Positions 7,538-38,536 of a stretch of 64,000 nucleotides of DNA are shown piece by piece. The DNA is taken from assembly GCA_009697505.1 (NCBI GenBank), contig SHUD01000002.1:62001-126000 (forward strand). The letters run 5' to 3'. The notes under the pieces are model-generated. The model was given only the letters and a program-made list of their open reading frames with translations, was not told the DNA's origin and did not search any database. Origin of the DNA: Bryobacterales bacterium. GTDB lineage: Bacteria; Acidobacteriota; Terriglobia; Bryobacterales; Bryobacteraceae. A program made the position numbers and the translations under genes. Position 1 is the first letter of the stretch. Every line of letters starts with the position of its first letter.

Positions 7538-7942
7538 ATGCCGACAACTTTACCCGAGATCTACTTCCCCATCGTAGTGCAGGTGATTATCGCCATCGCC
7601 GTGGCGGCTGGCCTGATCGGTGCGTCGACACTACTGGGCAAACGCGGCAAGAGCCCGCTTAAGGACACGCCTTATGAATCCGGCATGGCGCCGGTGGGCT
7701 CCGCGCGCGAACGGTTCAGCGTGAAGTTTTATCTGGTAGGGATGATTTTCATCCTGTTCGATATCGAAGCCGTGTTCCTGTATCCGTGGGCCGTGGTGTT
7801 CCGCGAACTGAAGATGTTCGCGCTGGCGGAGATGTTCGTCTTCGTGGCCCTGGTGCTGGTGGGTTACTTCTATGTATGGAAGAAGGGCGCCCTGGATTGG
7901 TCGGTAACGAGCCCGGCCGCCCGGAAGGGCAGGTCCAAGTGA
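7538..7942 (+). CDS. nuoA: NADH-quinone oxidoreductase subunit A
   Basis: First gene of the complex I operon. The protein has 134 residues and three membrane helices: about 10-30, 66-88 and 96-117. The loop between helices 1 and 2 carries the family motif KDTPYESGMAPVGSARERFSVKFY, in which the conserved Tyr-Glu-Ser-Gly is unmistakable. NuoA sits at the junction between the membrane arm and the quinone site. No clear Shine-Dalgarno precedes the ATG. Its stop overlaps the GTG start of nuoC, so nuoB, which usually comes next, is absent. Confidence 0.95.
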   Translation: MPTTLPEIYFPIVVQVIIAIAVAAGLIGASTLLGKRGKSPLKDTPYESGMAPVGSARERFSVKFYLVGMIFILFDIEAVFLYPWAVVFRELKMFALAEMFVFVALVLVGYFYVWKKGALDWSVTSPAARKGRSK

Positions 7943-8394
7943 ATCGCGCCTTCCATCACCCGGCAATTCTTGAAACACGTCAGGCCCTGGGCGAGATGAC
8001 GCTCATTGCCGATCCGGCGCGCATCGCGGATTTGTGCCGCCATCTGAAGGACAGCGAAAACTTTGTCCGCCTCAGTTCGCTCACGGCGGTCGACTGGCAT
8101 CCGGCCGAACCGCGCTTTGAAGTGGTGTATCACCTGCACTCGGTGGATCCCATTGGCAGGCTCCGCGTGAAGTGCGCGGTGGGCGGCGGCAGCCCTGAAA
8201 TCGATTCGGTGACCGGCGTGTGGCGCTGTTCCAATTGGTATGAGCGCGAGGTCTTCGACTTGTTCGGTATCCGCTTCCGCAATCATCCCAACCTGGTGCG
8301 CATCCTGATGCCCATCGACTGGGAAGGCCACCCGCTGCGCAAGGATTACCCGGTGCACGGCTACAAATACGACTACGGCCAGAGGAAAGATTAG
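7939..8394 (+). CDS. nuoC: NADH-quinone oxidoreductase subunit C
   Basis: A 151-residue peripheral-arm subunit (30-kDa homologue). The GTG at 7939 was chosen as start because it overlaps the nuoA stop (GTGA) and follows a GGAAGGGCAGG ribosome site. The open frame extends further upstream inside nuoA but is not NuoC-like there. Family motifs are NFVRLSSLTAVDW, FEVVYHLHS, WYEREVFDLFGIRF and HPLRKDYP near the C-terminus. Six bases separate it from nuoD, so it is not fused to NuoD as in some bacteria. Confidence 0.94.
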   Translation: MNRAFHHPAILETRQALGEMTLIADPARIADLCRHLKDSENFVRLSSLTAVDWHPAEPRFEVVYHLHSVDPIGRLRVKCAVGGGSPEIDSVTGVWRCSNWYEREVFDLFGIRFRNHPNLVRILMPIDWEGHPLRKDYPVHGYKYDYGQRKD

Positions 8395-8399
8395 CGGGC

Positions 8400-9644
8400 A
8401 TGAGCGACGTAAAGCATCCTTTTGACGACCACGTAGCGACCATTCCCGCCGCACAGGAGACGCCTGCCGGCCCCGCCGCGCCGCGGCGCATGACGCTGAA
8501 CATGGGGCCGCAGCATCCGTCGACGCACGGGGTGTTGCGCATCGTGATCGAACTCGAGGGCGAGATCATCGTCAAGGCCGAGCCGGATATCGGCTTCCTG
8601 CACACCGGCATTGAGAAGCAGTGCGAAGCAATCAACTGGGCCCAGGTGGTCACGTTGACCGACCGTGTTGACTATCTGTCGAACCTGGCCAACAACCTGG
8701 TCTATGCGTTGACAGTGGAAAAGCTCCTGCAAATGGAGATTCCGCCCAAGGCGCAGTGGATGCGGGTCATGCTGGCGGAACTCGACCGCCTGAACAGCCA
8801 TCTGGTCTGGCTGGGAACGCACGCGCTGGATATCGGCGCGATGAGCATGTTCTTCTACTGCTTCCGCGAGCGGGAAGACATCCTGCGGCTGAAGGAAATG
8901 TTCTCCGGCCAACGCATGATGACCAGCTACATCCGCCCTGGCGGTCTGGCGCTGGAGCCTCCGCGCGGCTGGGAGAAAGCGGTCGGCAAGTTCATTCGCG
9001 CGTTTCCGAGCAAGGTGGACGAGTACGAGAGCCTGCTCGATTCCAACCCGATCTGGAAGATCCGCACGCAGGGCGTGGGCTTCATTTCGATCGAAGACAT
9101 GCTGGACCTGGGTGTGACCGGGCCCATGATCCGCGCGGCGGGAATTCCGCTCGACGTGCGCAAGACGGAGCCGTATTCGAGCTACGAGAAATTTGATTTC
9201 ATCGTGCCGACGCGCACGGAAAACGACGTGTATTCGCGGTACCGCGTGCGCATGGAGGAGATGCGGCAGAGCGCGCGCATTGTGGTCCAGGCCATGGAAG
9301 GAATGCCGGAAGGCGCCATCACCGCCGATGCTCCGCACGTGGTGTTGCCGGATCGCGAAAAGATGAAGACCCAGATGGAGTCTTTGATCTATCATTTCAA
9401 GATCGTCACCGAGGGTTATCGCGTGCCGGCGGGCGAAGCATACCAGGCGGTGGAATCCCCGCGCGGCGAGATCGCCTACTACGCGGTGAGTAACGGAACC
9501 TCGAAGCCCTACCGCTTGTACATGCGCACGCCGAGCTTCGGGAACTTGATTGCGCTGCCCACGCTGCTGGAGGGGACGCTGATTGCCGATTCCATCGCGT
9601 CGCTCGGCAGCATGGATTTCGTGCTGGGAGATACGGACCGCTGA
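8400..9644 (+). CDS. nuoD: NADH-quinone oxidoreductase subunit D
   Basis: The 49-kDa homologue, 414 residues, which lines the quinone cavity together with NuoB. Seen are MNMGPQHPSTHGVLR-like sequence near residues 31-46, with the quinone-site His, and DIGFLHTGIEK. A C-terminal SIASLGSMDFVLGDTDR is the standard NuoD ending. Length is normal. A low-similarity N-terminal stretch of about 30 residues precedes the core. The ATG lies five bases after the nuoC stop and the gene overlaps nuoE by one base (TGATG). Its obligatory partner NuoB is not encoded in this operon. Confidence 0.96.
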   Translation: MSDVKHPFDDHVATIPAAQETPAGPAAPRRMTLNMGPQHPSTHGVLRIVIELEGEIIVKAEPDIGFLHTGIEKQCEAINWAQVVTLTDRVDYLSNLANNLVYALTVEKLLQMEIPPKAQWMRVMLAELDRLNSHLVWLGTHALDIGAMSMFFYCFREREDILRLKEMFSGQRMMTSYIRPGGLALEPPRGWEKAVGKFIRAFPSKVDEYESLLDSNPIWKIRTQGVGFISIEDMLDLGVTGPMIRAAGIPLDVRKTEPYSSYEKFDFIVPTRTENDVYSRYRVRMEEMRQSARIVVQAMEGMPEGAITADAPHVVLPDREKMKTQMESLIYHFKIVTEGYRVPAGEAYQAVESPRGEIAYYAVSNGTSKPYRLYMRTPSFGNLIALPTLLEGTLIADSIASLGSMDFVLGDTDR

Positions 9645-10126
9645 TGACTTTCTCGCCCCAACTGGAACAACGATTCGCGAAAATGCTGACGCGCTATCCG
9701 GAGGGCCGCACGCGCTCGGCGGTGATCCCCATGCTGATTTATGCGCAGGACGAAGTGGGAGCGATTACCCGCGACGTGATTGAAGAGGTCGCCAAGCGCT
9801 GCAAGGTGACGCCGGTGCAGGTGGATGAAGTGGTGGGCTATTACTCGATGCTCCACCGCAAGCCGCAAGGCAAGTTTCACGTGCAGGTGTGTACCAATAT
9901 CAGTTGCCTGCTGGTGGGCGGCGAAGAACTCTATGAGCACGCCAAAAAGAAGCTGGGCGTCGGCCATAAAGAAACCACGGCGGACGGGCAGTTTTCGCTG
10001 GAAGAAGTGGAATGCATGGGCGCCTGCTCGTGGGCCCCGGCGGTCGAGATCAACTACGATTTCCATCACCATGTGACGCCTGAGAAACTGGACCAGTTGA
10101 TCGACGGCCTCAGGAAGGCTCACTAA
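9644..10126 (+). CDS. nuoE: NADH-quinone oxidoreductase subunit E
   Basis: The 24-kDa homologue, 160 residues, with the thioredoxin-like fold that binds the off-path [2Fe-2S] cluster N1a. The four ligands are visible: CTNISC (C-x4-C, about residues 83-88) and CMGACSWAP (C-x3-C, about 124-128). The N-terminal helical region (about 1-75) includes VTPVQVDEVVGYYSML. It is translationally coupled on both sides: its ATG shares a base with the nuoD stop, and its own TAA overlaps the nuoF ATG. Confidence 0.95.
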   Translation: MTFSPQLEQRFAKMLTRYPEGRTRSAVIPMLIYAQDEVGAITRDVIEEVAKRCKVTPVQVDEVVGYYSMLHRKPQGKFHVQVCTNISCLLVGGEELYEHAKKKLGVGHKETTADGQFSLEEVECMGACSWAPAVEINYDFHHHVTPEKLDQLIDGLRKAH

Positions 10127-11418
10127 TGGCGAAACAACTTTACAATCCACCGAGTCCGCTCGAAACCAGAATCCTCAGTAAACGTTTCGGCCTGGAAGGG
10201 TCTGAAACGCTGGATGTGTACCTGGCCAACGACGGCTACAAGGCGTTCTTGAAAGCCAAGGAGATGGCGCCGGAGGCCATCATTGAAGAAGTGAAGACCT
10301 CGGCGCTACGCGGCCGCGGCGGCGCCGGATTCCCGACCGGACTCAAGTGGAGCTTCGTTCCGCGCACGTCGCCCAAGCCGCGCGTGATCGTGGTCAACGC
10401 CGATGAAAGCGAGCCGGGCACCTGTAAAGACAGGCTGCTGATGGAATACGATCCGCACCAGATGATCGAGGGGATTCTGATCGCGAGCCTCGCGGTGCAG
10501 GCGCACGTGGGTTACATCTATATCCGCGGCGAGTATCGTTATCTGGTCGAGGCGATGGACCGCGCGCTCGAGGAAGCCTACGCGAGGGGCTATCTGGGCA
10601 AGAACATCGCGGGCACGGGCTGGGACTTCGATCTTTACACCCATACCGGTGCGGGCGCTTACGAGTGCGGCGAGGAAACGGCCCTGCTCGATTCGCTGGA
10701 AGGCAAGCGCGGCATACCGCGGATGAAGCCTCCCTTTCCGGCCGTGGCCGGCGCGTGGGCCATGCCGACGCTCCTCAACAACGTGGAAACGTTCAGCGCG
10801 ATTCCTCCTATCATTCGCGACGGCGGCGCGGCATTCGCGGCGCTGGGCACGCCGAAAAACGGCGGGACGCGGCTGGTGTGCATCTCCGGGCATGTGAACC
10901 AGCCGGGCGTATATGAACTGCCCCTGGGCTTCCCGATGATGAAGGCGATCGAGGAGGTCGCGGGCGGCATCCCCGGCGGCAAGAAATTGAAAGCCGTGGT
11001 TCCGGGAGGGTCGTCGTGTCCGATCTTGAGAGCCGATGAGTGCGACATCGCCATGGACTACGATACCCTCGCGAAAATCGGCAGCATGCTGGGCTCGGGC
11101 GGCATGGTGGTGCTGGATGAGACCACCGACATGGTCGGCTTCGCGCTGCGCATCATGCGCTTCTACGCGCACGAGAGCTGCGGCTGGTGCATCCCCTGCC
11201 GCGAAGGCACCACCTGGATGAAGAAGATCCTGACGCGATTCCACGAAGGGCAGGGCCGCCGCGAAGACATAGCGCTGCTGGGCGAGCTGTCGAAGAACAT
11301 GCTGGGGCGCACCTTCTGCGCGCTGGGCGACGCCGCGGCTTTGCCCACTATCTCTATCGTTGAGAAATTCACGGAAGATTTTGAAACATATCTCGCGCGC
11401 CAAGAGGTGATGGTTTAA
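10126..11418 (+). CDS. nuoF: NADH-quinone oxidoreductase subunit F
   Basis: The 51-kDa homologue, 430 residues. It accepts hydride from NADH onto FMN and passes electrons to cluster N3. Visible features are GRGGAGFPTGLKW (about residues 62-74, NADH/FMN site), VNADESEPGTCKDR (FMN loop), YIRGEY, and the N3 [4Fe-4S] motif ESCGWCIPCREGT at about 346-358 with a distal Cys in GRTFCALGD at about 395. It starts at the nuoE stop (TAATG) and lies three bases ahead of nuoG. Confidence 0.97.
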   Translation: MAKQLYNPPSPLETRILSKRFGLEGSETLDVYLANDGYKAFLKAKEMAPEAIIEEVKTSALRGRGGAGFPTGLKWSFVPRTSPKPRVIVVNADESEPGTCKDRLLMEYDPHQMIEGILIASLAVQAHVGYIYIRGEYRYLVEAMDRALEEAYARGYLGKNIAGTGWDFDLYTHTGAGAYECGEETALLDSLEGKRGIPRMKPPFPAVAGAWAMPTLLNNVETFSAIPPIIRDGGAAFAALGTPKNGGTRLVCISGHVNQPGVYELPLGFPMMKAIEEVAGGIPGGKKLKAVVPGGSSCPILRADECDIAMDYDTLAKIGSMLGSGGMVVLDETTDMVGFALRIMRFYAHESCGWCIPCREGTTWMKKILTRFHEGQGRREDIALLGELSKNMLGRTFCALGDAAALPTISIVEKFTEDFETYLARQEVMV

Positions 11419-11421
11419 GCC

Positions 11422-13476
11422 ATGGCTGAACTTGTAAAGCTGACAATTGACGGCAGAGAGATCCAAGCCGAAAAAGGCGCGCTGCTGATCGAAGTGGCGC
11501 GGCAGAACGGCATCGAGGTGCCCGCGTTCTGCTATCACGAGGATTACTCGCTACAGGCCGCCTGCCGCATGTGCCTGGTGGAGATCGAGAAGACTCCCAA
11601 GCTTCAGGTCGGCTGCACGACGCCGGCGGCCGAAGGCATGGTGGTGCGCACGGATTCCGACATCGTCAGAACAGCACGGAAAGGAACGCTCGAATTCCTG
11701 CTGACCAACCATCCGCTGGACTGCCCGGTGTGCGACAAGGGCGGCGAGTGCGAATTGCAGGACATGGTGTTCCGCTACGGCGCCGGGGAGAGCCGCTTCG
11801 TCGAGCGCAAGCATCACGTGGACGAAAAGCAATGGTCTCCCGTGGTGTACTTCGACGCGCCGCGCTGCATCCTGTGTTACCGCTGCGTGCGCGCCTGCAA
11901 TGAAGGCATGGGCGTGGGCGCGTTGGGCGTCGGCAATCGGGGAGCCATCTCAGAGATCATTCCCAATCACGACGATCATCTGGAATGCGATGAATGCGGC
12001 GCCTGTATCGATATCTGTCCCGTGGGCGCGCTGACCAGCGGCAGCTACCGCTATCAGACGCGGCCCTGGGAGATGGAGCATGTCGGCACCATCTGCACGC
12101 ACTGTGCCGACGGTTGCAAGACCACGCTGGGCGTTCGCAACCACGAGATCGTCCGCGGTAACAACCGCGACCGCAGCGGCATCAACGACGAATTCCTGTG
12201 CATCAAGGGCCGCTACGCGTTCGATTTCACGAAACATCCGGAGCGGTTGCAATCGCCGATGCTGCGTACAGAGAAGGGTTACCAGCCAATCTCCTGGTCA
12301 AAGGCCCTCGCCATCGTCGCCACCAAGTTCAGCACGGTGAAGCTGGCGGGCGGACGCTTCGGCGTAATCGGCTCCAACCACACGACCAACGAAGAAAACT
12401 TTTTCCTGGCCAAGTTCGCGCGCCAGGGGCTCGAAACCAAGAACATCGATCATCACCGCACGGGTGATCTGGCGGCATTCTTTGATGCACTATCGGGAAA
12501 GAATAACGTGCTGGCAACGACGGCGGATCTGTACCAAGCGAAAGCCGTGCTGGTCGTCGGCGCGGATCTCTCGCAGCAGCATCCGTTCCTGGCGTTCCAG
12601 GCTCGCGCCAATGTCCGCCATCACGATGGCCACATTTACGCAGTCACTACCGGTGAGGTTCGCGAAGACCAGCAGGCCGTGGCGAGTGTCCGCGTCGAAA
12701 AGGGCGGGGAACTGGCCGGGGTCGAATCGCTGCGCGACAAGTTGAAAGCGGAAGGCGATCTGGTGATCGTGTTCGGCGACGCCGTGCAGGGTGATGTTCT
12801 CCGCAAGCTGGTAGCTTTCGGCGATTCGCTCGGCATTCCGGTCAAGTACGTTTGCCTGGTGGATTATTCGAATTCGCGGGGCGCATTCGACATGGGCGTG
12901 ACGCCGAAGGACGGCGGCCTATCGCGCGAGCAGATGCTGGCGGCGGCCGACTTGGACGTGTTGTGGGTGGTGGGCGCGAATCCGCTCAAGAACGCCCAGC
13001 TCGCATCGAAGAATGCGTTCGTCGTGGTGCAGGACCTGTTTATGACGGAGACGGCGAAGCAGGCCGATATCGTGCTGCCCGCGGCTTCCGCGTATGAGAA
13101 GAGCGGCACGGTGACCAACGTTTGCGGCGAAGTGCAGAAGCTGGCCCAAGCGATCAAGGTGATGGGTCCGAAGACGGATCTCGAAGTTATGGGCCTGATC
13201 GCCAAGGAAATGGGCTTGGACCTGGGTATCTGGCTGCCGGAGAAAGTGTTCGCGGAAATCAGGAAGTCCGTTCATGGATACAACATGTCGCAGGGCCAGT
13301 TGGCTGTGGGACCGGCCGCGACCATGCCGCTCAACGGCCGGGTGGCGGCGCTGCCGGGAACCATCCAATCTTCCGGCGATACCTTGTTCACCTCCGGATC
13401 GCTCACGCGTTATTCCGGGATTCTCAACTCCGTTATGGAAGCCCCGGGTCAACTGTACCGCGGTAAGGGGCAATAG
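11422..13476 (+). CDS. nuoG: NADH-quinone oxidoreductase subunit G
   Basis: The 75-kDa homologue, 684 residues. An N-terminal ferredoxin domain carries N1b ligands (C-x10-C-x2-C in CYHEDYSLQAACRMC, then a further Cys near residue 64). Then come the His-Cys cluster region (HPLDCPVCDKGGECELQ), a two-cluster segment (CILCYRCVRAC, CDECGACIDICPVGAL) and CTHCADGC (C-x2-C-x3-C) with a later Cys in EFLCIKGRY. That last set is the extra N7-type cluster motif found in E. coli and Thermus. The C-terminal half is a molybdopterin-oxidoreductase-like domain without catalytic cofactor. Normal operon position, seven bases upstream of nuoH. Confidence 0.96.
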   Translation: MAELVKLTIDGREIQAEKGALLIEVARQNGIEVPAFCYHEDYSLQAACRMCLVEIEKTPKLQVGCTTPAAEGMVVRTDSDIVRTARKGTLEFLLTNHPLDCPVCDKGGECELQDMVFRYGAGESRFVERKHHVDEKQWSPVVYFDAPRCILCYRCVRACNEGMGVGALGVGNRGAISEIIPNHDDHLECDECGACIDICPVGALTSGSYRYQTRPWEMEHVGTICTHCADGCKTTLGVRNHEIVRGNNRDRSGINDEFLCIKGRYAFDFTKHPERLQSPMLRTEKGYQPISWSKALAIVATKFSTVKLAGGRFGVIGSNHTTNEENFFLAKFARQGLETKNIDHHRTGDLAAFFDALSGKNNVLATTADLYQAKAVLVVGADLSQQHPFLAFQARANVRHHDGHIYAVTTGEVREDQQAVASVRVEKGGELAGVESLRDKLKAEGDLVIVFGDAVQGDVLRKLVAFGDSLGIPVKYVCLVDYSNSRGAFDMGVTPKDGGLSREQMLAAADLDVLWVVGANPLKNAQLASKNAFVVVQDLFMTETAKQADIVLPAASAYEKSGTVTNVCGEVQKLAQAIKVMGPKTDLEVMGLIAKEMGLDLGIWLPEKVFAEIRKSVHGYNMSQGQLAVGPAATMPLNGRVAALPGTIQSSGDTLFTSGSLTRYSGILNSVMEAPGQLYRGKGQ

Positions 13477-13482
13477 CCACCG

Positions 13483-14700
13483 ATGACTTTTTTCATAGTC
13501 AGTATCATTAAGTCCGCGGTGGTGGCCTTCGTGCTGCTTACCGCGCTGGCCTATTTGCAGTGGGCCGAACGCAAAGTTCTGGCGCACATCCAATTGCGCG
13601 TTGGGCCGCGCCGCGTGGGTCCGCATGGGTTGCTCCAGCCGCTGGCCGACGTCATCAAGTTGATCACCAAAGAAGACATGATGCCGTCGCATGTGGACAA
13701 GTTCTTTTGGTTTCTGGCGCCCTTCATCGCGGTGTTGTTCGCGCTCATCCCGATCGCAGTCATTCCGTTCGGCACGGAACTGAATCTTCCTGCCATGGAT
13801 CTTGGCCCGCTTCACATCCCGGCAATCCAGACCGCCATGCAGTTGACCGACATCAATATCGGCGTGCTGTTCATTCTGGGGATTTCCGGCTTGGGTGTGT
13901 ACGGAGTCGCGCTGGCGGGTTGGTCGTCGAACAATAAGTATTCGCTGCTCGGCGGACTGCGCAGCTCCGCGCAGATGATCAGCTACGAACTGCCGATGGC
14001 GCTGGCCATTGCGGCGCCGCTTTTGGTTCTGAACACGCTCAGCTTCCGCGGCATCGTTGACGGGCAGAGCGGATTCATGCTCGGCTTCCTGCCCAAGTGG
14101 ACCATCTTCCAGGTGTTCCCGTTCAATCTGATCAGTTTCATTCTGTTTATGATCGCGGCGTTCGCGGAAACCAACCGCGTGCCCTTCGATTTGCCCGAAG
14201 CCGAAAACGAACTGGTGGCGGGTTTCCATACCGAGTACGGCAGCATGAAGTTCGCCGCGTTCTTCATGGCCGAATACTGCAACATGGTGACGGTCTCCTG
14301 CGTGGCGACGCTGCTGTTTCTGGGCGGCTGGCATCCGCCATTCCCGGCGGAATACGGTTCCAATTACGTTCCCTCGCTGGTTCTGGTTGGCGCGGGGATT
14401 TTGAGTTTTCTGCACGGCGCCAATCCCGCGCGGCCGTTTGACCGGATCACGCTCCCGGTGTTCGGCGTGGTGTTCTTCGGTCTGGCGGTCCTGATTGCGA
14501 TTCCCGCGGTCGCATTGCCGCTGATGCCGATTATCTGGTTTTCGGCGAAGGCGTGCTTCATCCTGTTTGTCTATATCTGGGTGCGCGGCACTCTGCCGCG
14601 TTTCCGCTATGACCAACTCATGAGCTTCGCCTGGACCTTCATGTTTCCGATTGCGATCGTCAACCTGTTCCTTACCGGCCTATGGGTGGCCTTGAGCTAA
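13483..14700 (+). CDS. nuoH: NADH-quinone oxidoreductase subunit H
   Basis: A 405-residue membrane subunit with about eight to ten helices, lining the quinone entry tunnel. Signature sequences are ERKVLAHIQLRVGPRRVGP (about residues 29-47), followed by LLQPLADVIKLITKED, and the acidic AETNRVPFDLPEAENELVAG near 228-247, the best conserved NuoH loop. It is about 80 residues longer than E. coli NuoH, partly through a longer helix-linker segment after residue 80. nuoI would normally follow, but nuoJ begins four bases downstream. Confidence 0.96.
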   Translation: MTFFIVSIIKSAVVAFVLLTALAYLQWAERKVLAHIQLRVGPRRVGPHGLLQPLADVIKLITKEDMMPSHVDKFFWFLAPFIAVLFALIPIAVIPFGTELNLPAMDLGPLHIPAIQTAMQLTDINIGVLFILGISGLGVYGVALAGWSSNNKYSLLGGLRSSAQMISYELPMALAIAAPLLVLNTLSFRGIVDGQSGFMLGFLPKWTIFQVFPFNLISFILFMIAAFAETNRVPFDLPEAENELVAGFHTEYGSMKFAAFFMAEYCNMVTVSCVATLLFLGGWHPPFPAEYGSNYVPSLVLVGAGILSFLHGANPARPFDRITLPVFGVVFFGLAVLIAIPAVALPLMPIIWFSAKACFILFVYIWVRGTLPRFRYDQLMSFAWTFMFPIAIVNLFLTGLWVALS

Positions 14701-14704
14701 GCCT

Positions 14705-15202
14705 ATGGACGCACTTCTCTTCATGATCTTCGCCGCCATCGCCGTGGTGTGCGGCATCAATTTGGTGGTGCAGACGCATCCGATTTCGAGCGCGCTGTCA
14801 CTGGTGGGCGTGATGGGCGCGCTGGCCGCGCTGTACTTGCTTCTCGGAGGCGAATTCATCGCCGCCGCGCAGTTGGTGGTTTACGCGGGCGCCATCATGG
14901 TGCTGTTCATCTTCGTGATCATGCTGCTCAACGCCGGCACCGAAGCTCGCGGACGCCGCAGTTGGGCGCATTATGCGGGCGTCCCTCTGTTGCTCTTGCT
15001 GTTCGGATTGATCGCCTGCCTCATCACGCGGCGCATGCCGGCCTCGGAAAATGTGGTTTTCGGGCAGTTCACCAAGGGAGGGCCGCTGGACATCGGGCGG
15101 GCGCTGTTCACCACCTATCTGTTGCCATTTGAAGTCACCAGCGTGCTGATCCTGGTCGCCATTCTGGGGGCGATCGTTCTGGCGCGCAAGGAGATCGACT
15201 AA
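14705..15202 (+). CDS. nuoJ: NADH-quinone oxidoreductase subunit J
   Basis: A 165-residue membrane subunit with five helices. The family region [30 protein letters not shown] (about 55-84) includes the pi-bulge helix 3 involved in coupling quinone chemistry to the proton path. The C-terminal helix [17 protein letters not shown] is also typical. It directly follows nuoH, skipping nuoI, and overlaps the nuoK ATG by one base. Confidence 0.95.
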
Positions 15203-15522
15203 TGCCTGCTCTTCCCGCGAGCGTTCCTCTTTCCTGGTATCTGATCCTCAGCGCGATTTTGTTTTCGCTGGGCGTGGCCGGGTTTCTGTTCCGCCGCAAC
15301 ATCATCACCGTGTTTATGTCCATCGAGCTGATGCTCAACGCGGTGAATCTGAGTTTTGTCACGTTCTCCTACAAACTGAAACAAGTAGACGGACATATTT
15401 TTAGCTTCTTCGTGATGGTAGTGGCGGCAGCGGAAGCCGCGGTTGGCCTCGCGATTATCCTGACGGTTTTCAAAAACCGGCAGACCCTCGAAATCGACGA
15501 AGTGAGTTCTCTGAAAAATTAA
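15202..15522 (+). CDS. nuoK: NADH-quinone oxidoreductase subunit K
   Basis: A 106-residue, three-helix subunit. It keeps the two membrane glutamates that take part in proton transfer: one in [12 protein letters not shown] (about residue 40) and one in [12 protein letters not shown] (about 76). Length and hydropathy match NuoK. The start overlaps the nuoJ stop (TAATG) and the nuoL ATG lies one base after the nuoK stop. Confidence 0.96.
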
Positions 15523-15523
15523 G

Positions 15524-17461
15524 ATGCACCAACTTTGGCTGATCCCTCTTCTCCCGCTGGCCGGCTTTGCCATCAACGGACTGTTTGGCCGGCGCCTGGC
15601 CAAGCCCGCGATTAACGCCGTGGCGGTCGGCTCCGTGCTGCTGAGTTTCCTGTGGGTGCTGAAGACCCTGAGCGCGTTGGGTGTTTTCGGTGGCGGCGAA
15701 AGTGTGCTCGAACTGGCCTACCAGGAACACTATTTCACCTGGATTCAGTCCGGCTCGCTGAACATCGGCGTGGACTTCGCCATTGACCGGCTGACGGCGG
15801 TCATGCTGATGATCGTCACGGGAGTGGGCTTTCTGATTCATGTGTACGCTGTCGGCTACATGGCGCACGAGGGCGGCTATTACCGCTTCTTCGCCTACCT
15901 GAATCTGTTCATGTTCTTCATGCTGACGCTGGTGCTGGGCGCCAACTTCCTGCTGCTATTCGTGGGCTGGGAAGGCGTGGGCTTGTGCAGCTACCTGCTG
16001 ATCGGCTTCTACTTCCTGGAGAAGTTTGCCACCGACGCCGGCAACAAGGCGTTCATCGTGAATCGCATCGGCGACTTCGGGTTTTCGCTCGCGGTCTTTC
16101 TCATCGCCATGCACTTCGGCTCGCTGGATTTCACGACAGTGTTCGGCAAGGCGAAGGATATGCCGGTGGAATCGAGCGCGGGCTGGATGACGGCGATTGC
16201 GCTGCTGCTGTTTGTCGGTGCGGCGGGCAAGTCGGCACAAATTCCGCTGTATGTCTGGTTGCCGGACGCGATGGCTGGTCCCACGCCGGTCAGTGCCCTC
16301 ATCCACGCCGCGACCATGGTGACGGCGGGCGTCTACATGGTGGCGCGTAGTTCAGAGATCTTCCTGCATGCGCATGGAGCGCTGGAAGTGGTGGCGATGG
16401 TCGGTCTGGCGACGGCATTCTTCGCGGCGACGATGGGCCTGGCGCAGACGGATATCAAGAAGGTTTACGCCTACTCGACGGTCTCGCAGCTCGGCTACAT
16501 GTTCCTGGGCCTGGGTTCGGGAGCATTTTCCGCCGGCATCTTCCACGTGATGACCCACGCGTTCTTCAAAGCCCTGTTGTTCCTGGGCGCCGGCAGCGTG
16601 ATCCACGCCATGTCCGGCGAGCAGGACCTGGGCAAGATGGGCGGACTGAAAAAATACACGCCAATCACTTTCTGGACGTTGTTGTGCGCGAGCGTGGCCA
16701 TCGCGGGTATTCCACCGTTTTCCGGCTACCACAGTAAAGACGCGATTCTCGCGGCGGCCTACGAGTTCGCCCCGTGGATGTACTGGGTAGGCGTTGTTAC
16801 TGCCGGCATGACCGCCTTCTATGTCTTCCGCGCGTTTTTCCTGGCGTTCTTTGGAGAGCCTCGTTGGAAGAAGACTCACGATTCCCACGGGCATGGCCAC
16901 GAAGATCGCGATGCGCACGGCGGCCACGGTCACGGCGAGCCGCATGAATCGCCGGCGTCAATGTGGGTTCCGCTGGCCGTGCTGGCGGTGGGGAGCCTCG
17001 CCGGTGGCTACATCAACATCCCCAAATGGCTGGAGCCGATGTTCAAGTTGCATGAAGAAGCTCCTGGCACCGAATGGCTAGTGATCGTTTCGGTTGCAGC
17101 AGGAGTGATCGGCATCGCGCTCGCGGCGCTGTTCTACCTGGTCTCGCCGGGCATTCCGGAAGGGCTCGCGCGGACGTTCAGTACCCCGTACCGGTGGATC
17201 TACAACAAGTACTTCGTGGACGAGTTCTACGATGCACTCGTGGTGAACCCTACCGTGGACGGCTCCCGCTCGCTGCTGTGGCGGGTGGTGGACGCCGGCG
17301 CCATTGACGGAACCGTAAATGGTGTCGGAAAGACGGCACGGGCCGTGGGTGGAATCTTGAAACGCATGCAATCCGGCTCCATACGAAGTTACGCGGCATG
17401 GGTGGTGCTGGGCTCGATCATCGTCATCACGGCGATCAACATGGCGGGAGGCGGGAAATGA
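15524..17461 (+). CDS. nuoL: NADH-quinone oxidoreductase subunit L, with His-rich loop
   Basis: A 645-residue antiporter-like proton-pumping subunit at the distal end of the membrane arm, with about 15-16 helices and a long amphipathic C-terminal helix region. Family motifs include FVGWEGVGLCSYLLIGFY (about 144-161), AGKSAQIPLYVWLPDAMAGP with a key Lys, TPVSALIHAATMVTAG, and AYSTVSQLGYMFLGLG. Between two C-terminal helices, near residues 452-478, lies a soluble loop with ten His residues, rich in HGH and DxHGG repeats. That is unusual for NuoL and could bind metal. The ATGA overlap with nuoM points to coupled translation. Confidence 0.96.
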   Translation: MHQLWLIPLLPLAGFAINGLFGRRLAKPAINAVAVGSVLLSFLWVLKTLSALGVFGGGESVLELAYQEHYFTWIQSGSLNIGVDFAIDRLTAVMLMIVTGVGFLIHVYAVGYMAHEGGYYRFFAYLNLFMFFMLTLVLGANFLLLFVGWEGVGLCSYLLIGFYFLEKFATDAGNKAFIVNRIGDFGFSLAVFLIAMHFGSLDFTTVFGKAKDMPVESSAGWMTAIALLLFVGAAGKSAQIPLYVWLPDAMAGPTPVSALIHAATMVTAGVYMVARSSEIFLHAHGALEVVAMVGLATAFFAATMGLAQTDIKKVYAYSTVSQLGYMFLGLGSGAFSAGIFHVMTHAFFKALLFLGAGSVIHAMSGEQDLGKMGGLKKYTPITFWTLLCASVAIAGIPPFSGYHSKDAILAAAYEFAPWMYWVGVVTAGMTAFYVFRAFFLAFFGEPRWKKTHDSHGHGHEDRDAHGGHGHGEPHESPASMWVPLAVLAVGSLAGGYINIPKWLEPMFKLHEEAPGTEWLVIVSVAAGVIGIALAALFYLVSPGIPEGLARTFSTPYRWIYNKYFVDEFYDALVVNPTVDGSRSLLWRVVDAGAIDGTVNGVGKTARAVGGILKRMQSGSIRSYAAWVVLGSIIVITAINMAGGGK

Positions 17462-18999
17462 GTCTACTGGACATCGTCCTGTTCCTGCCGCTGGTAGGCT
17501 TCCTGTTGCTGGTCTTCACGCCCAAAGGCAACGATCAACTGCCGCGGGTGATGGCGCTGGGGATTTCTCTTCTGGTCTTCGTGATCTCCTTAGGTCTGAT
17601 CGGTCCGTTCATGGGCTCGACGATCCCCGAGGGTTACCAGTTCGTCACCGATGCTTCGTGGATCAGCTCGCCGCCGATCCGCTATCACATAGGTCTGGAC
17701 GGCCTCAGTCTGTGGCTGGTGCTCTTAACCACGCTGCTGACGCCGATCGCGGTGCTGGTTTCGTGGAAGTCCATCGACCATCGCGTCAAGGAATTTTTCG
17801 CGTTTCTGATTTTGTTGGAATTCGGGCTGATCGGCGTGTTCGTTTCGCTCGACCTGTTCCTGTTCTACGTGTTCTGGGAAATCGGTCTGGTGCCAATGTA
17901 TTTCCTGATCGGAATCTGGGGCCACGACCGCCGCATCTATGCCGCCGTCAAGTTCTTCTTGTACACGATGGCGGGCTCGGTGCTGATGCTGGCCGGGATC
18001 ATCTATCTCTACAACCGCGCCGGCACATTCGATTACGTGCAGATCCTGAGCCAGTTGCAGAGCGGCCGTCTGGTGCTCAGTTCGCAGGCGGAAATGCTGC
18101 TGTTCAGCGCCTTCTTCCTGGCGTTCGCGATTAAAGTGCCGTTGTTCCCGTTGCACACCTGGTTGCCGGACGCGCACGTGGAAGCGCCGACGGCCGGCTC
18201 CATCATGCTGGCCAGCGTCATGCTGAAAATGGGAACGTACGGGTTGGTGCGCTACTCGGTGCCGCTGTTCCCGAACGCCGCGCACAAAGCCGCGCCATTC
18301 ATCATCGGACTCGCGGTCATCGGCATTATTTACGGAGCGCTGGTCGCGCTGGTCCAGCCGAACATGAAGAAGTTGGTGGCGTATTCTTCGGTCAGCCACC
18401 TTGGCTTTGTAGTCCTCGGTGTATTCTCTTTCACCCAACAGGGACTGGACGGCGCCGTGTACCAGATGTTGAATCACGGCATCTCGACGGGCGCGTTGTT
18501 CATGCTGGTTGGATTTCTGTACGAACGGCGCCATTCGCTGGAGATTTCAGCCTATGGCGGCGTGGCCACGCCCGCTCCAAACCTGGCTATCGTTTTCTTA
18601 ATTACGACGTTGGCCTCAGTGGGTTTACCCATGCTGAATAACTTCGTGGGCGAATATCTGGTGCTGCAGGGCGCATCACAGGTCAATTTCACGGCAACTG
18701 TGTTCGCGGCCGTGGGCGTGATCCTCTCGGCCTGCTACATGCTGTGGCTGTACCAGCGGACGTTCTACGGAAAAGCCTCCGAATCTCTGAGTCATCACAT
18801 GCCCGATCTCAGCACGCGGGAGTGGGCGGTGTCTGTGCCTCTTCTGCTGCTGATGTTCTGGATGGGCATTTATACGCAGACATTCATGCCACCGATTAGT
18901 GCGCAGAACGCACGGATTCTTCAGCAATACCAGCAACAACAGAACCGGCCACAATCAGCGAACACGCCCGGCGCAAGCGAGGTGGCCAATGCCCGCTAA
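17458..18999 (+). CDS. nuoM: NADH-quinone oxidoreductase subunit M
   Basis: A 513-residue antiporter-like membrane subunit. The ATG at 17458 was chosen because it overlaps the nuoL stop (ATGA) and gives a standard N-terminus (MSLLDIVLFLPLVGFLLL). An in-frame extension upstream lies inside nuoL and is not membrane-like. Motifs are FWEIGLVPMYFLIGIWG with the conserved Glu, FAIKVPLFPLHTWLPDAHVE with its Lys and His, and AYSSVSHLGFVVLG. It ends with a Gln/Asn-rich hydrophilic tail and overlaps nuoN by 11 bases. Confidence 0.95.
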   Translation: MSLLDIVLFLPLVGFLLLVFTPKGNDQLPRVMALGISLLVFVISLGLIGPFMGSTIPEGYQFVTDASWISSPPIRYHIGLDGLSLWLVLLTTLLTPIAVLVSWKSIDHRVKEFFAFLILLEFGLIGVFVSLDLFLFYVFWEIGLVPMYFLIGIWGHDRRIYAAVKFFLYTMAGSVLMLAGIIYLYNRAGTFDYVQILSQLQSGRLVLSSQAEMLLFSAFFLAFAIKVPLFPLHTWLPDAHVEAPTAGSIMLASVMLKMGTYGLVRYSVPLFPNAAHKAAPFIIGLAVIGIIYGALVALVQPNMKKLVAYSSVSHLGFVVLGVFSFTQQGLDGAVYQMLNHGISTGALFMLVGFLYERRHSLEISAYGGVATPAPNLAIVFLITTLASVGLPMLNNFVGEYLVLQGASQVNFTATVFAAVGVILSACYMLWLYQRTFYGKASESLSHHMPDLSTREWAVSVPLLLLMFWMGIYTQTFMPPISAQNARILQQYQQQQNRPQSANTPGASEVANAR

Positions 19000-20446
19000 C
19001 GCATTCCCCACCAGCGCGGAATATTTGCGCTTTCTCCCCGAGATCATCCTGACGCTCGGCGGCGTGGTGATCATGCTGCTCGAAGCCGTCTTCACGAATG
19101 ACGACCAGCGCAAGATCTTCGGGCCGCTATCAATTGTTGCCCTGTTCGCGGCGCTACTCGCATCGATTTCCGCCGCGGGCGACCCCGGCGCGGCGTTCAG
19201 CAACATGCTGGTTATCGACGGTTTCGCTTCGTTTTTCCGGGCCCTGGTGATCGGCATCGGCGTTCTGGCGATCCTCGGTTCCACCGGTTACCTGCGCCAG
19301 GAGCGCATGCCGGGTGGCGAATATCATGCTCTGATCCTGTTCAGCATTCTGGGCCAGTGCGTCATGGTCAGCGCCAACGAACTGATCATGATTTTCATCG
19401 GCCTGGAGATTTCTTCCATCGCTTCTTACGTGCTGGCGGGTTACCTTCGCGACGATCCGCGCAACAATGAGTCGGCGCTCAAGTATTTTCTGCTGGGCTC
19501 CTTCGCCACGGCATTCCTGCTGTATGGCGTGGCTTGGATCTACGGCCTGACGGGTTCCACCAACCTGGATCAGATCCGCGGCGCGTTGCAGACGTCGGCC
19601 GCGCCTCTGGTGATGGCCGGGGCAGCCGCGGCTTTCATGTTTGTGGGTTTCGGATTTAAGATCTCCGCCGCTCCGTTCCAGATCTGGGCCCCGGACGTTT
19701 ACCAGGGCGCTCCCGCGCCGGTGTCAGGTTTTCTCTCGGTGGGCCCCAAGGCAGCCGCATTCGCGATTCTGCTGCGCGTGTTCATGACCGCGTTCGGCCC
19801 TATCGCCGACCGCTGGGAGCCGATGGTTTGGGGTTGCGCGCTGGCGACCATGATGGTCGGTAACTTCGCCGCGCTTCAGCAATCCAACATCAAGCGCATG
19901 CTGGCCTATAGCTCGATTGCCCATGCCGGATACGTGCTGGTTGCGGTCACGGCGCATTCGGAAACCGGTTCGGCGGCCGCCATGTTCTACCTCGCCGCGT
20001 ACGCCTTCACGAACCTGGGCGCGTTCGCCGTGGTCACCTATTTCTCGCGCAAGGGAGAAAAGTACGTTGCCATTGACGACTTCGCGGGGCTCTCGCAGCG
20101 CCAGCCCGCGATGGCCGCGATGCTGACCATCTTCCTGCTGAGCCTGATTGGCGTGCCGTTGACGGCCGGCTTCTTCGGCAAGTTCTATATCTTCAAAGCA
20201 GCTCTCGATGCCAATCTCACCTGGCTTACCGTGCTCGGCTTGCTCAATAGCGCCGTCGCCGCGTATTACTATCTGCGTCTGCTGGTCGTGATGTACTTCA
20301 AGGACCCGGGCGATTCCGTAGAAAACCTCGAACCCGCGGGCCTCAGCTTGCAGATTGCCGTGTATGCATCCGCGTTCGGCACGCTGCTGTTGGGGATTTT
20401 CCCGGGTTGGGTGCTGGATATCGCGACCAAGTCGGCACTCAAGTAA
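18989..20446 (+). CDS. nuoN: NADH-quinone oxidoreductase subunit N
   Basis: A 485-residue antiporter-like subunit and the last gene of the operon. The start at 18989 gives MPANAFPTSAEYLRFLPEI, and the gene overlaps the nuoM end by 11 bases. Motifs are ELIMIFIGLEISSIASYVL (about 124-142), FKISAAPFQIWAPDVYQGAP with the conserved Lys, and AYSSIAHAGYVLV. It converges on the HAD-hydrolase gene with one base between the stop codons, leaving no room for an independent terminator. Confidence 0.95.
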   Translation: MPANAFPTSAEYLRFLPEIILTLGGVVIMLLEAVFTNDDQRKIFGPLSIVALFAALLASISAAGDPGAAFSNMLVIDGFASFFRALVIGIGVLAILGSTGYLRQERMPGGEYHALILFSILGQCVMVSANELIMIFIGLEISSIASYVLAGYLRDDPRNNESALKYFLLGSFATAFLLYGVAWIYGLTGSTNLDQIRGALQTSAAPLVMAGAAAAFMFVGFGFKISAAPFQIWAPDVYQGAPAPVSGFLSVGPKAAAFAILLRVFMTAFGPIADRWEPMVWGCALATMMVGNFAALQQSNIKRMLAYSSIAHAGYVLVAVTAHSETGSAAAMFYLAAYAFTNLGAFAVVTYFSRKGEKYVAIDDFAGLSQRQPAMAAMLTIFLLSLIGVPLTAGFFGKFYIFKAALDANLTWLTVLGLLNSAVAAYYYLRLLVVMYFKDPGDSVENLEPAGLSLQIAVYASAFGTLLLGIFPGWVLDIATKSALK

Positions 20447-37375: not shown

Positions 37376-38536
37376 TTACGCCCGCGTGAGAAACACCGGC
37401 ATCCCGAGCTTACCAGTGTAGTTGGGCCGGTAGCGCTCCTTGTTGTACATGGTGTCGACGTCCAGTTTCCGCGGGCCCAGCTTGGGATCGGGAATCGGCA
37501 CCATGTCGTAGCACCCGTTGTGGATCGCGGCCATCAAACCGCTCTTGCCGGCCACGGTGGCTTCAAACGCCATGGTTCCGAACGTCGAGGCGATCAATTT
37601 GTCCATGAAGTCCGGAGAGCCACCGCGCAGGTCGTAGGTCAGGTCGCTCACCACGGTCTCTTCGCCAGTGCGCCGGATGATTTCGCTGCTGAGCGTTTCG
37701 GCGATGCTGGTTTTCTTGCGATGCCCGTAGCCATCCGGCTCGCCGTATTCCTGAAGTTTGTAGCCTTCCCATTGCGCGCCTTCTGACAGCACGACCAGAG
37801 CGTAGTTGCTCGGGTTACGGCGCTTGTCGGTGAGGATCAGATCGATCAGCTTGTCCAGGTTCACTTTGTATTCCGGGATTACGCAGCGGATCGAACTGAC
37901 CCACGCCGTATAGAGGGCGGTGTATCCCGCGTCGCGTCCGAACACGCGGAAGATGCCGATGCGCTCGTGCGAGCCGACGGTGGTGAGCTGCCGGTCGATG
38001 GCGTCGGCCGCGCGCGTGACAGCGGTGGAAAAGCCGACGCAATACTCGGTGTTCTGGACGTCATTGTCCATAGTCTTGGGCACGGCGATCACTTTCACGC
38101 CCAGTTGGTCAAGGCGGGCGGCAAAGCTCAGCGTGTCGTCACCGCCGATGGCGATCAGGGAATCAATGCCTAGCCGTTCCAGGTTATTGAGCACCTGTCC
38201 GCTCATGTCCCACTTGCCGTCTTTCTCCGGGAAACCGGCGTCCGCCAGGAATTCGGGAACCTTTTTCATCTTCGACGGGTTGGTCCGGCTGGTGTGCAGC
38301 ATCGTGCCGCCGTCGCGGTCGATGGTGCGCGTGTTGTCGCGCGTGAGAGGGAGAACGTAGCGTTCCCGGCTCTCCGGGTCGTCCAGGTTGAGGTGGGTGA
38401 GCGCTTCCCAGCCGCGGCGGAAGCCGGTGACTTCAATGTTGTTTTCCGCACCGCGGTAAACAACGCTCTTGATGACTGCATTCAGGCCGGGGACATCGCC
38501 ACCGCCGGTAAGGATACCGATTCTTTTAAGTGCCAT
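37376..38536 (-). CDS. 6-phosphofructokinase with PPi-type active-site residues
   Basis: A 386-residue PfkA-superfamily enzyme. GILTGGGDVPGLNAVI at residues 7-22 is the phosphoryl-donor loop. The donor-specificity positions read GGDDT (131-135) and PKTMDND (153-159). ATP enzymes have GGDGS and PGTIDND, whereas Asp and Lys at these positions are the mark of pyrophosphate-dependent enzymes. The catalytic Asp of DND and the sugar-binding RDAGYTA motif are present. It begins three bases after the fliJ stop, so it seems co-transcribed with the flagellar genes. Assay would be needed to prove PPi use; a reversible, ATP-sparing glycolytic step is the inference. Confidence 0.88.
   Translation of the reverse strand: MALKRIGILTGGGDVPGLNAVIKSVVYRGAENNIEVTGFRRGWEALTHLNLDDPESRERYVLPLTRDNTRTIDRDGGTMLHTSRTNPSKMKKVPEFLADAGFPEKDGKWDMSGQVLNNLERLGIDSLIAIGGDDTLSFAARLDQLGVKVIAVPKTMDNDVQNTEYCVGFSTAVTRAADAIDRQLTTVGSHERIGIFRVFGRDAGYTALYTAWVSSIRCVIPEYKVNLDKLIDLILTDKRRNPSNYALVVLSEGAQWEGYKLQEYGEPDGYGHRKKTSIAETLSSEIIRRTGEETVVSDLTYDLRGGSPDFMDKLIASTFGTMAFEATVAGKSGLMAAIHNGCYDMVPIPDPKLGPRKLDVDTMYNKERYRPNYTGKLGMPVFLTRA

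What the first reader, a model, noticed from the sequence alone, without database searches (positions are those of the whole stretch)
7538..20446. Complex I operon lacks nuoB and nuoI, with no gaps where they should be
nuoA overlaps nuoC directly (GTGA), where nuoB usually sits. nuoH is followed by nuoJ after four bases, where nuoI usually sits. All other twelve subunits are present and look intact. NuoB (cluster N2, quinone site) and NuoI (clusters N6a/b) are essential for electron transfer from NuoG to quinone, so they must be encoded elsewhere or the complex is incomplete. The tight stop-start overlaps show the gene order is settled, not a recent deletion.
Basis: partly seen in the sequence, partly recalled or inferred. 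Interest (0 to 1): 0.62.

Follow-up and report, generated by a model that had tools for sequence, protein, structure and literature searches.

The report
Complex I genes nuoB and nuoI relocated
A soil bacterium keeps twelve of the fourteen genes for respiratory complex I in one cluster and, judging by its own genome and its relatives, has the other two as lone genes at distant places; this looks like an old, stable arrangement shared by much of its class, so the enzyme is most likely complete rather than broken.

Summary
Window 7538-20446 holds intact nuoA-C-D-E-F-G-H-J-K-L-M-N; nuoA/nuoC overlap (GTGA) and nuoH/nuoJ are four bases apart. The window's genome is a 65% complete MAG. Its nuoB is a solitary gene on another contig, with all N2 cysteine ligands. 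nuoI was not found in this assembly, but both congeners examined (99% and 100% complete) carry a full-scoring main-type nuoI far from nuoH. In the family sample 0 of 55 main nuoH have nuoI within 3 kb or nuoB within 20 kb; 4 of the 55 genomes, this one included, show no full main-type nuoI. In a class sample the same holds for 41 of 41 best nuoH of seven families, while three families are mixed. Seven family genomes have exactly one nuoH, nuoB and nuoI, leaving no other source for the subunits. Trees of moderate support suggest nuoI left the cluster first and nuoB later. Most likely a normal 14-subunit complex I assembled in trans from three loci. Split nuo loci are known; my searches found no report of this one.

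The parts
7538..7942 (+). nuoA (134 aa), followed directly by nuoC instead of nuoB
7939..8394 (+). nuoC (151 aa, GTG start inside the nuoA stop: GTGA)
8400..9644 (+). nuoD (414 aa)
9644..10126 (+). nuoE (160 aa)
10126..11418 (+). nuoF (430 aa)
11422..13476 (+). nuoG (684 aa)
13483..14700 (+). nuoH (405 aa), followed directly by nuoJ instead of nuoI
14705..15202 (+). nuoJ (165 aa)
15202..15522 (+). nuoK (106 aa)
15524..17461 (+). nuoL (645 aa)
17458..18999 (+). nuoM (513 aa)
18989..20446 (+). nuoN (485 aa)

Best explanation
The twelve-gene cluster encodes the N-module, the membrane arm and part of the Q-module of an ordinary 14-subunit complex I. The two missing Q-module iron-sulfur subunits, NuoB (cluster N2) and NuoI (N6a, N6b), are made from two solitary genes at separate chromosomal sites and join the complex in trans. 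nuoI probably left the ancestral nuoA-N cluster first, in an ancestor shared with some other acidobacterial groups, and nuoB later, in an ancestor of seven of the ten sampled families of the class; both then stayed as independent genes. Shown: gene positions, orthology, intact ligands, single-copy genomes. Inferred: assembly into one complex, activity, the order of events, and the presence of nuoI in the unassembled part of this genome.
For: nuoB in the same genome, C72:18489-18911(-), 185 aa, above the nuoB_fam cut-off, grouped with the two congener NuoBs in the tree. Main-type nuoI in congener G024 (99% complete; nuoH C52, nuoI C11, nuoB C22) and congener G072 (100%; nuoH C8:21521, nuoI C8:103526, about 81 kb apart, nuoB C6). 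In G008 nuoH, nuoI and nuoB of the main type lie hundreds of kilobases apart on one 6.69 Mb contig. Family: 0 of 55 main nuoH near nuoI or nuoB. Class: 0 of 41 best nuoH in families f1, f2, f5, f6, f8, f9, f10. Seven family genomes with exactly one H, B and I above threshold, so no paralogue can supply the subunits; likewise in the class sample e.g. G080, G088, G100, G091, G114. Ligands intact: both 4Fe-4S motifs in 22 of 22 NuoI; N2 cysteines in 26 of 26 NuoB, 25 matching my strict pattern and one with GVC for GAC, read by eye. Best PDB matches are complex I chains 6 and 9 of 2fug. The 16 solitary main NuoBs put in the tree, from six families, form one clade (SH-aLRT 89); the 17 solitary main NuoIs form one clade with seven of eight solitary NuoIs from outside the class (SH-aLRT 83). 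Intermediate state: nuoB in place and only nuoI gone in L191 and L201.
Against: nuoI is not in this assembly, and the congener's nuoI neighbourhood is not recognisable in it, so its presence here is inferred. A full main-type nuoI is also missing from the family list in G010 (96% complete), G038 (87%) and G045 (92%, fragment only), so 4 of 55 with G000; in the class sample from G082 (100%) and G089 (88%), so 3 of 41 with G000. I did not resolve whether those genomes use the second complex's NuoI or have gaps. nuoB was not found in G009 and G018 nor in G095. Families f3, f4 and f7 of the class are mixed. Outside the class, 12 of 24 nuoH loci read have nuoI in place, so relocation of nuoI is not phylum-wide. 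The trees are quick, on 150-162 columns, with moderate support and long-branch warnings. No biochemical, proteomic or expression evidence was available.
Confidence: 0.87

Rival explanations
1. The complex in this organism is incomplete or degenerate: nuoI (or nuoB) is truly lost and the cluster works as a partial enzyme or is decaying.
For: No nuoI in the held genome: only matches of 31.7 and 26.2 bits against a cut-off of 113. Some relatives with good completeness estimates also lack a main-type nuoI in the lists, e.g. G010 and G082.
Against: The assembly is 65% complete. Both congeners examined keep nuoI. All twelve cluster genes are open and match their families, and nuoB keeps its ligands.
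Confidence: 0.06
2. The gap is an assembly or binning artefact: nuoB and nuoI were collapsed out of the cluster or placed on other contigs wrongly.
For: The source is a fragmented MAG of 87 contigs.
Against: The H-J junction occurs in 29 of 29 nuoH loci of relatives read, both junctions in the contiguous genome G008 (L067) and in named records L180-L183, L185-L188 and L190. The C72 nuoB shares malQ and dnaJ neighbours with congener G072.
Confidence: 0.01
3. The twelve-gene complex borrows NuoB and NuoI from a second, paralogous complex I.
For: Many relatives carry a second cluster (C-D-H-J-K-L-M-N, with or without I) and some a third, canonical one; G010 and G082 list only a second-type NuoI.
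Against: Seven family genomes have one nuoH, one nuoB and one nuoI only. Main-type NuoB and NuoI form clades apart from the second-complex copies. No second nuoH was found in this genome.
Confidence: 0.04

Closest known systems
Canonical 14-subunit bacterial complex I (nuoA-N)
   Same: Twelve clustered subunits in canonical order; NuoB and NuoI match best chains 6 and 9 of PDB entry 2fug (that this is the Thermus enzyme is recalled) and keep all Fe-S ligands.
   Different: nuoB and nuoI are not in the cluster; each is a solitary gene elsewhere.
Nitrospina gracilis NUO-2 (PMC3578206, passages read)
   Same: A complex I whose genes are spread over the genome; nuoB2 is outside any operon.
   Different: There nuoB2 and nuoF2 are solitary, nuoI stays in its cluster and the others form two clusters, with altered cofactor-binding patterns. 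Here nuoB and nuoI are solitary and their ligands are standard.
Split complex I gene sets in the 2025 HMM survey (PMC12361115, passages read)
   Same: The survey says that the majority of clades mix split and single-cluster complex I, and that most Acidobacteriota species showed a complete set.
   Different: In the passages seen it names no lineage-wide absence of nuoB and nuoI from the cluster.
Scattered ndh genes of cyanobacteria (recalled, no call)
   Same: Core subunits dispersed over the chromosome yet assembled into one complex.
   Different: There several small groups and no NADH module; here one 12-gene cluster with E, F, G plus two lone genes.

Membership tests
14-subunit NADH-quinone oxidoreductase (complex I, NDH-1) | N-module NuoE, NuoF, NuoG | tested here: met
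   TIGR01958, TIGR01959, TIGR01973 all above cut-off
14-subunit NADH-quinone oxidoreductase (complex I, NDH-1) | Membrane arm NuoA, H, J, K, L, M, N | tested here: met
   All seven present and open; H, K, L, M, N above at least one cut-off, A and J matched but below the cut-offs of the models listed
14-subunit NADH-quinone oxidoreductase (complex I, NDH-1) | Q-module NuoC and NuoD | tested here: met
   TIGR01961, TIGR01962 above cut-off
14-subunit NADH-quinone oxidoreductase (complex I, NDH-1) | NuoB with N2 ligands | tested here: met
   Solitary gene in the same genome; CC, GAC and PGCPPR present
14-subunit NADH-quinone oxidoreductase (complex I, NDH-1) | NuoI with two 4Fe-4S motifs | tested here: inconclusive
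   Not in this 65% complete assembly; present with both motifs in both congeners examined
14-subunit NADH-quinone oxidoreductase (complex I, NDH-1) | NADH:quinone oxidoreductase activity, proton pumping | not testable with these tools
   needs protein
Canonical single-cluster nuoA-N operon | nuoB between A and C, nuoI between H and J | tested here: not met
Complex I-like enzymes without an NADH module | nuoE, F, G absent | tested here: not met
   E, F, G intact in the cluster

The most novel reading that the evidence does not exclude
The two electron-carrying Q-module subunits NuoB and NuoI were moved under separate control so that their supply gates complex I assembly, for example by iron-sulfur or oxygen status. 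Several families of abundant soil bacteria would then have kept an assembly checkpoint at the N6-N2 electron path for a very long time.
Probability: 0.1. Interest if true: 0.6.

Novelty: new variant of a known kind. Interest (0 to 1): 0.4.

Why it matters
It is a natural test, replicated across several families, of whether complex I subunits need to be made from one operon. Both relocated subunits carry the Fe-S clusters on the last part of the path to quinone, so separate regulation is directly testable. In practice, a method that groups nuo hits only when they lie close together (250 bp in PMC12361115) would class these clusters as partial.

Tried and rejected
Assembly collapse was rejected by the same junctions in relatives. 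A nuoBI pair elsewhere was looked for: one search counted nine nuoB-nuoI placements within 20 kb in the family sample; the script printed only the count, and by the coordinates I place them in G002 (two), G008, G012, G027, G030, G031, G045 and G057, each near a second- or third-type nuoH.

I tried to see whether the nuoI locus of congener G072 exists in the window's genome without nuoI, which would mean true loss. Only scattered pieces match: pfkA, which lies in the window at 37376-38536, a piece on C21 and a short one on C22. Synteny is broken, so this decides nothing. I looked for a word or dyad shared upstream of nuoA, nuoB and nuoI in the family (6, 20 and 17 sequences): only GC-rich words came out on top, the best 7-mer in 2, 5 and 6 sequences, slightly above mononucleotide shuffles; no dyad listed occurred twice upstream of nuoA or nuoB. 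One search translated a wrong frame (coordinates off by one) and was not used. One search lost some centre genes and was redone; one search stopped with a script error at its last nuoI locus, which was run. Papers: PMC5900883 holds none of the complex I terms searched; Chadwick 2018 and Oppermann 2022 were not held, and only their titles were seen in reference lists.

Full report
Observation. The window is G000:C39:62001-126000, a MAG of 2,557,084 bases in 87 contigs, 65% complete. Between 7538 and 20446 there are twelve intact complex I genes in the order A-C-D-E-F-G-H-J-K-L-M-N. nuoA and nuoC share GTGA and nuoH-nuoJ are four bases apart. Family models name all twelve subunits; A and J match only below the cut-offs of the models listed. 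Neither NuoB nor NuoI is encoded in the window.

Where the two genes are. nuoB is alone on contig C72 at 18489-18911, minus strand, in a frame of 185 aa that scores 224 bits against a cut-off of 142.7. A NuoI search of the same genome gives only matches of 31.7 and 26.2 bits (cut-off 113), so nuoI is not in the assembly. In the congeners G024 (99% complete) and G072 (100%) a full-scoring main-type nuoI is present and not next to nuoH: in G024 nuoH, nuoI and nuoB are on three contigs; in G072, which also has a second nuoH, nuoI and nuoB, the main nuoH and nuoI are about 81 kb apart on one contig. In G008 the main nuoH (5179 kb), nuoI (3953 kb) and nuoB (4569 kb) are hundreds of kilobases apart on one 6.69 Mb contig; which of its two solitary nuoB genes is the main one rests on identity (72% against 60%) and the tree. 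A nuoI in the unassembled part of G000 is the simplest reading; true loss is not excluded.

How general. In the family sample (61 genomes) 55 have a main-type nuoH as I picked it from the list (446 bits or more). The other six (G006, G022, G040, G046, G049, G060), with a second- or third-type nuoH only, a fragment, or none, were left out. In 0 of 55 is a listed nuoI within 3 kb or a listed nuoB within 20 kb. Two of the 55 have no listed nuoB (G009, G018). Four have no full main-type nuoI in the list: G000, G010 (96% complete), G038 (87%) and G045 (fragment only). Short contigs limit the distance test in some genomes, but the direct H-J junction was read in 30 of 30 nuoH loci, 29 of them from relatives. 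In the class sample (71 genomes; 3 without a nuoH match) the best nuoH has no nuoI within 3 kb and no nuoB within 10 kb in 41 of 41 genomes of families f1, f2, f5, f6, f8, f9 and f10. Of these 41, G000, G082 and G089 list no main-type nuoI and G095 no nuoB. Families f3 (10 genomes with nuoH; nuoI near in 5, nuoB near in 1), f4 (9; 7 and 4) and f7 (8; 2 and 5) are mixed. Whole A-C-D-E-F-G-H-J-K-L-M-N clusters were read in f1, f2, f4 (G093), f5, f6, f8 and f9.

Names. The contig of L183 has the same length and match position as G109:C7 of family f9. Of the best 80 named loci found with an alignment of this nuoH type, 76 could be classed: in 52 nuoH is followed by nuoI, none of them titled as acidobacterial; in 24 it is followed by nuoJ, 21 of them with acidobacterial titles, the other three being L202 Acidimicrobiia, L210 Poribacteria and L225, a MAG labelled Bifidobacterium breve. 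That list is centred on the query and is no survey. In the phylum sample 24 nuoH loci from outside the class were read: 12 have nuoJ directly after nuoH and 12 have nuoI in place, some of the latter in second complexes. So relocation of nuoI reaches beyond the class but is not phylum-wide.

Are the solitary genes the partners? Seven family genomes have exactly one nuoH, one nuoB and one nuoI above threshold (G014, G023, G024, G034, G041, G042, G050), so the solitary copies are the only candidates there. Ligands are conserved: two CxxCxxCxxxCP motifs in 22 of 22 NuoI; N2 cysteines in 26 of 26 NuoB, of which 25 match my strict pattern and one (L164) has GVC in place of GAC, read by eye. The best PDB matches are chains 6 and 9 of 2fug.

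History. A quick tree of 54 NuoB rows puts the 16 main solitary copies, from six families, in one clade (SH-aLRT 89), apart from the NuoB of the second complex; their next relatives are not resolved. A quick tree of 55 NuoI rows puts the 17 main solitary copies of the class together with seven of eight solitary copies from outside it (SH-aLRT 83). Both trees carry long-branch warnings, and rows were chosen by hand. Some groups outside the class have nuoB in place and only nuoI gone: L191 and L201, and G146 and G158 by coordinates and junctions. So nuoI probably left first and nuoB second. Within the family the new sites are themselves old: nuoB lies divergent to malQ in 17 of 20 loci read (not in L116, L123, L128) and upstream of flaG-fliS in 8 of 20; nuoI lies near a STAS protein, a peroxiredoxin-like gene, a FAD oxidoreductase or a histidine kinase in 12 of 17 (loci chosen mainly for contig length). 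Names of these neighbours are my reading of the sequences, not a family search. In the loci from other families (11 nuoB, 8 nuoI) no malQ, flaG or fliS was found; one peroxiredoxin-like match lies 231 bases from nuoB in L164 and other matches are over 3 kb away.

Mechanism. The simplest account is a normal complex I assembled in trans. Assembly itself is not shown. No convincing shared upstream motif was found. In Acidobacterium capsulatum the nuoAC transcripts stay high while nuoE-N fall with oxygen (PMC11636273, passages); the passages give no separate nuoB or nuoI values, so they neither support nor refute separate control.

Literature. Searches with nuoB, nuoI and acidobacterial names or words for dispersed genes listed no paper that, by its title and start of abstract, describes this arrangement. 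I read passages of PMC12361115, PMC3578206 and PMC11636273, and a term search of PMC5900883 found nothing. Only openly licensed papers are in that library, lists were capped, and genome papers may mention it without these words.

Verdict. Confirmed observation and largely correct interpretation: an old relocation of two essential subunit genes, shared by several families of the class. It is a variant of a known kind (split nuo loci) and of moderate interest.

Noticed in passing
L147:8577-10853 and L152:6206-8476: In 8 of 10 family f3 genomes one nuoB lies in a 769-886 aa frame; in L147 nuoB, nuoC and nuoD matches share one frame, a likely B/C/D fusion (NCBIfam NF009808 is such a family), while cluster L146 of the same genome reads A-E-H-J-K-L-M-N without F and G.
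   Followed up: partly
L202, L226, L227, L233, L243: Clusters A-B-C-D-E-F-H-J (L227: D-E-F-H-J) with no nuoG match between F and H and no nuoI between H and J, so nuoG too may be relocated in other Acidobacteriota.
   Followed up: no
L322, L330, L350: In G161 and G173 (outside the class) nuoB and nuoI sit together as a pair, and in G133 as nuoB-nuoC-nuoI, with no nuoH in the short stretch read.
   Followed up: partly
L134 (G064:C6:176000-195900): Two complex I clusters face each other tail to tail, and both listed nuoB and both listed nuoI of this genome are on other contigs.
   Followed up: partly
L239: A Planctomycetota MAG shows nuoA followed by nuoC with nuoI in place, so nuoB may be relocated there independently.
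   Followed up: no
G010, G082: Genomes estimated 96% and 100% complete that list only a second-type NuoI although they have the main cluster type; a gap, a true loss or sharing between complexes.
   Followed up: no
window 37376-38536 (-): A phosphofructokinase-like gene; in congener G072 its counterpart lies about 3.7 kb upstream of solitary nuoI, in the window it does not.
   Followed up: yes
L004:11021-12112 (-): In the window's genome a 363 aa gene sits between malQ and nuoB and ends 12 bases before nuoB, so nuoB may be co-transcribed with it here, unlike in most relatives read.
   Followed up: no
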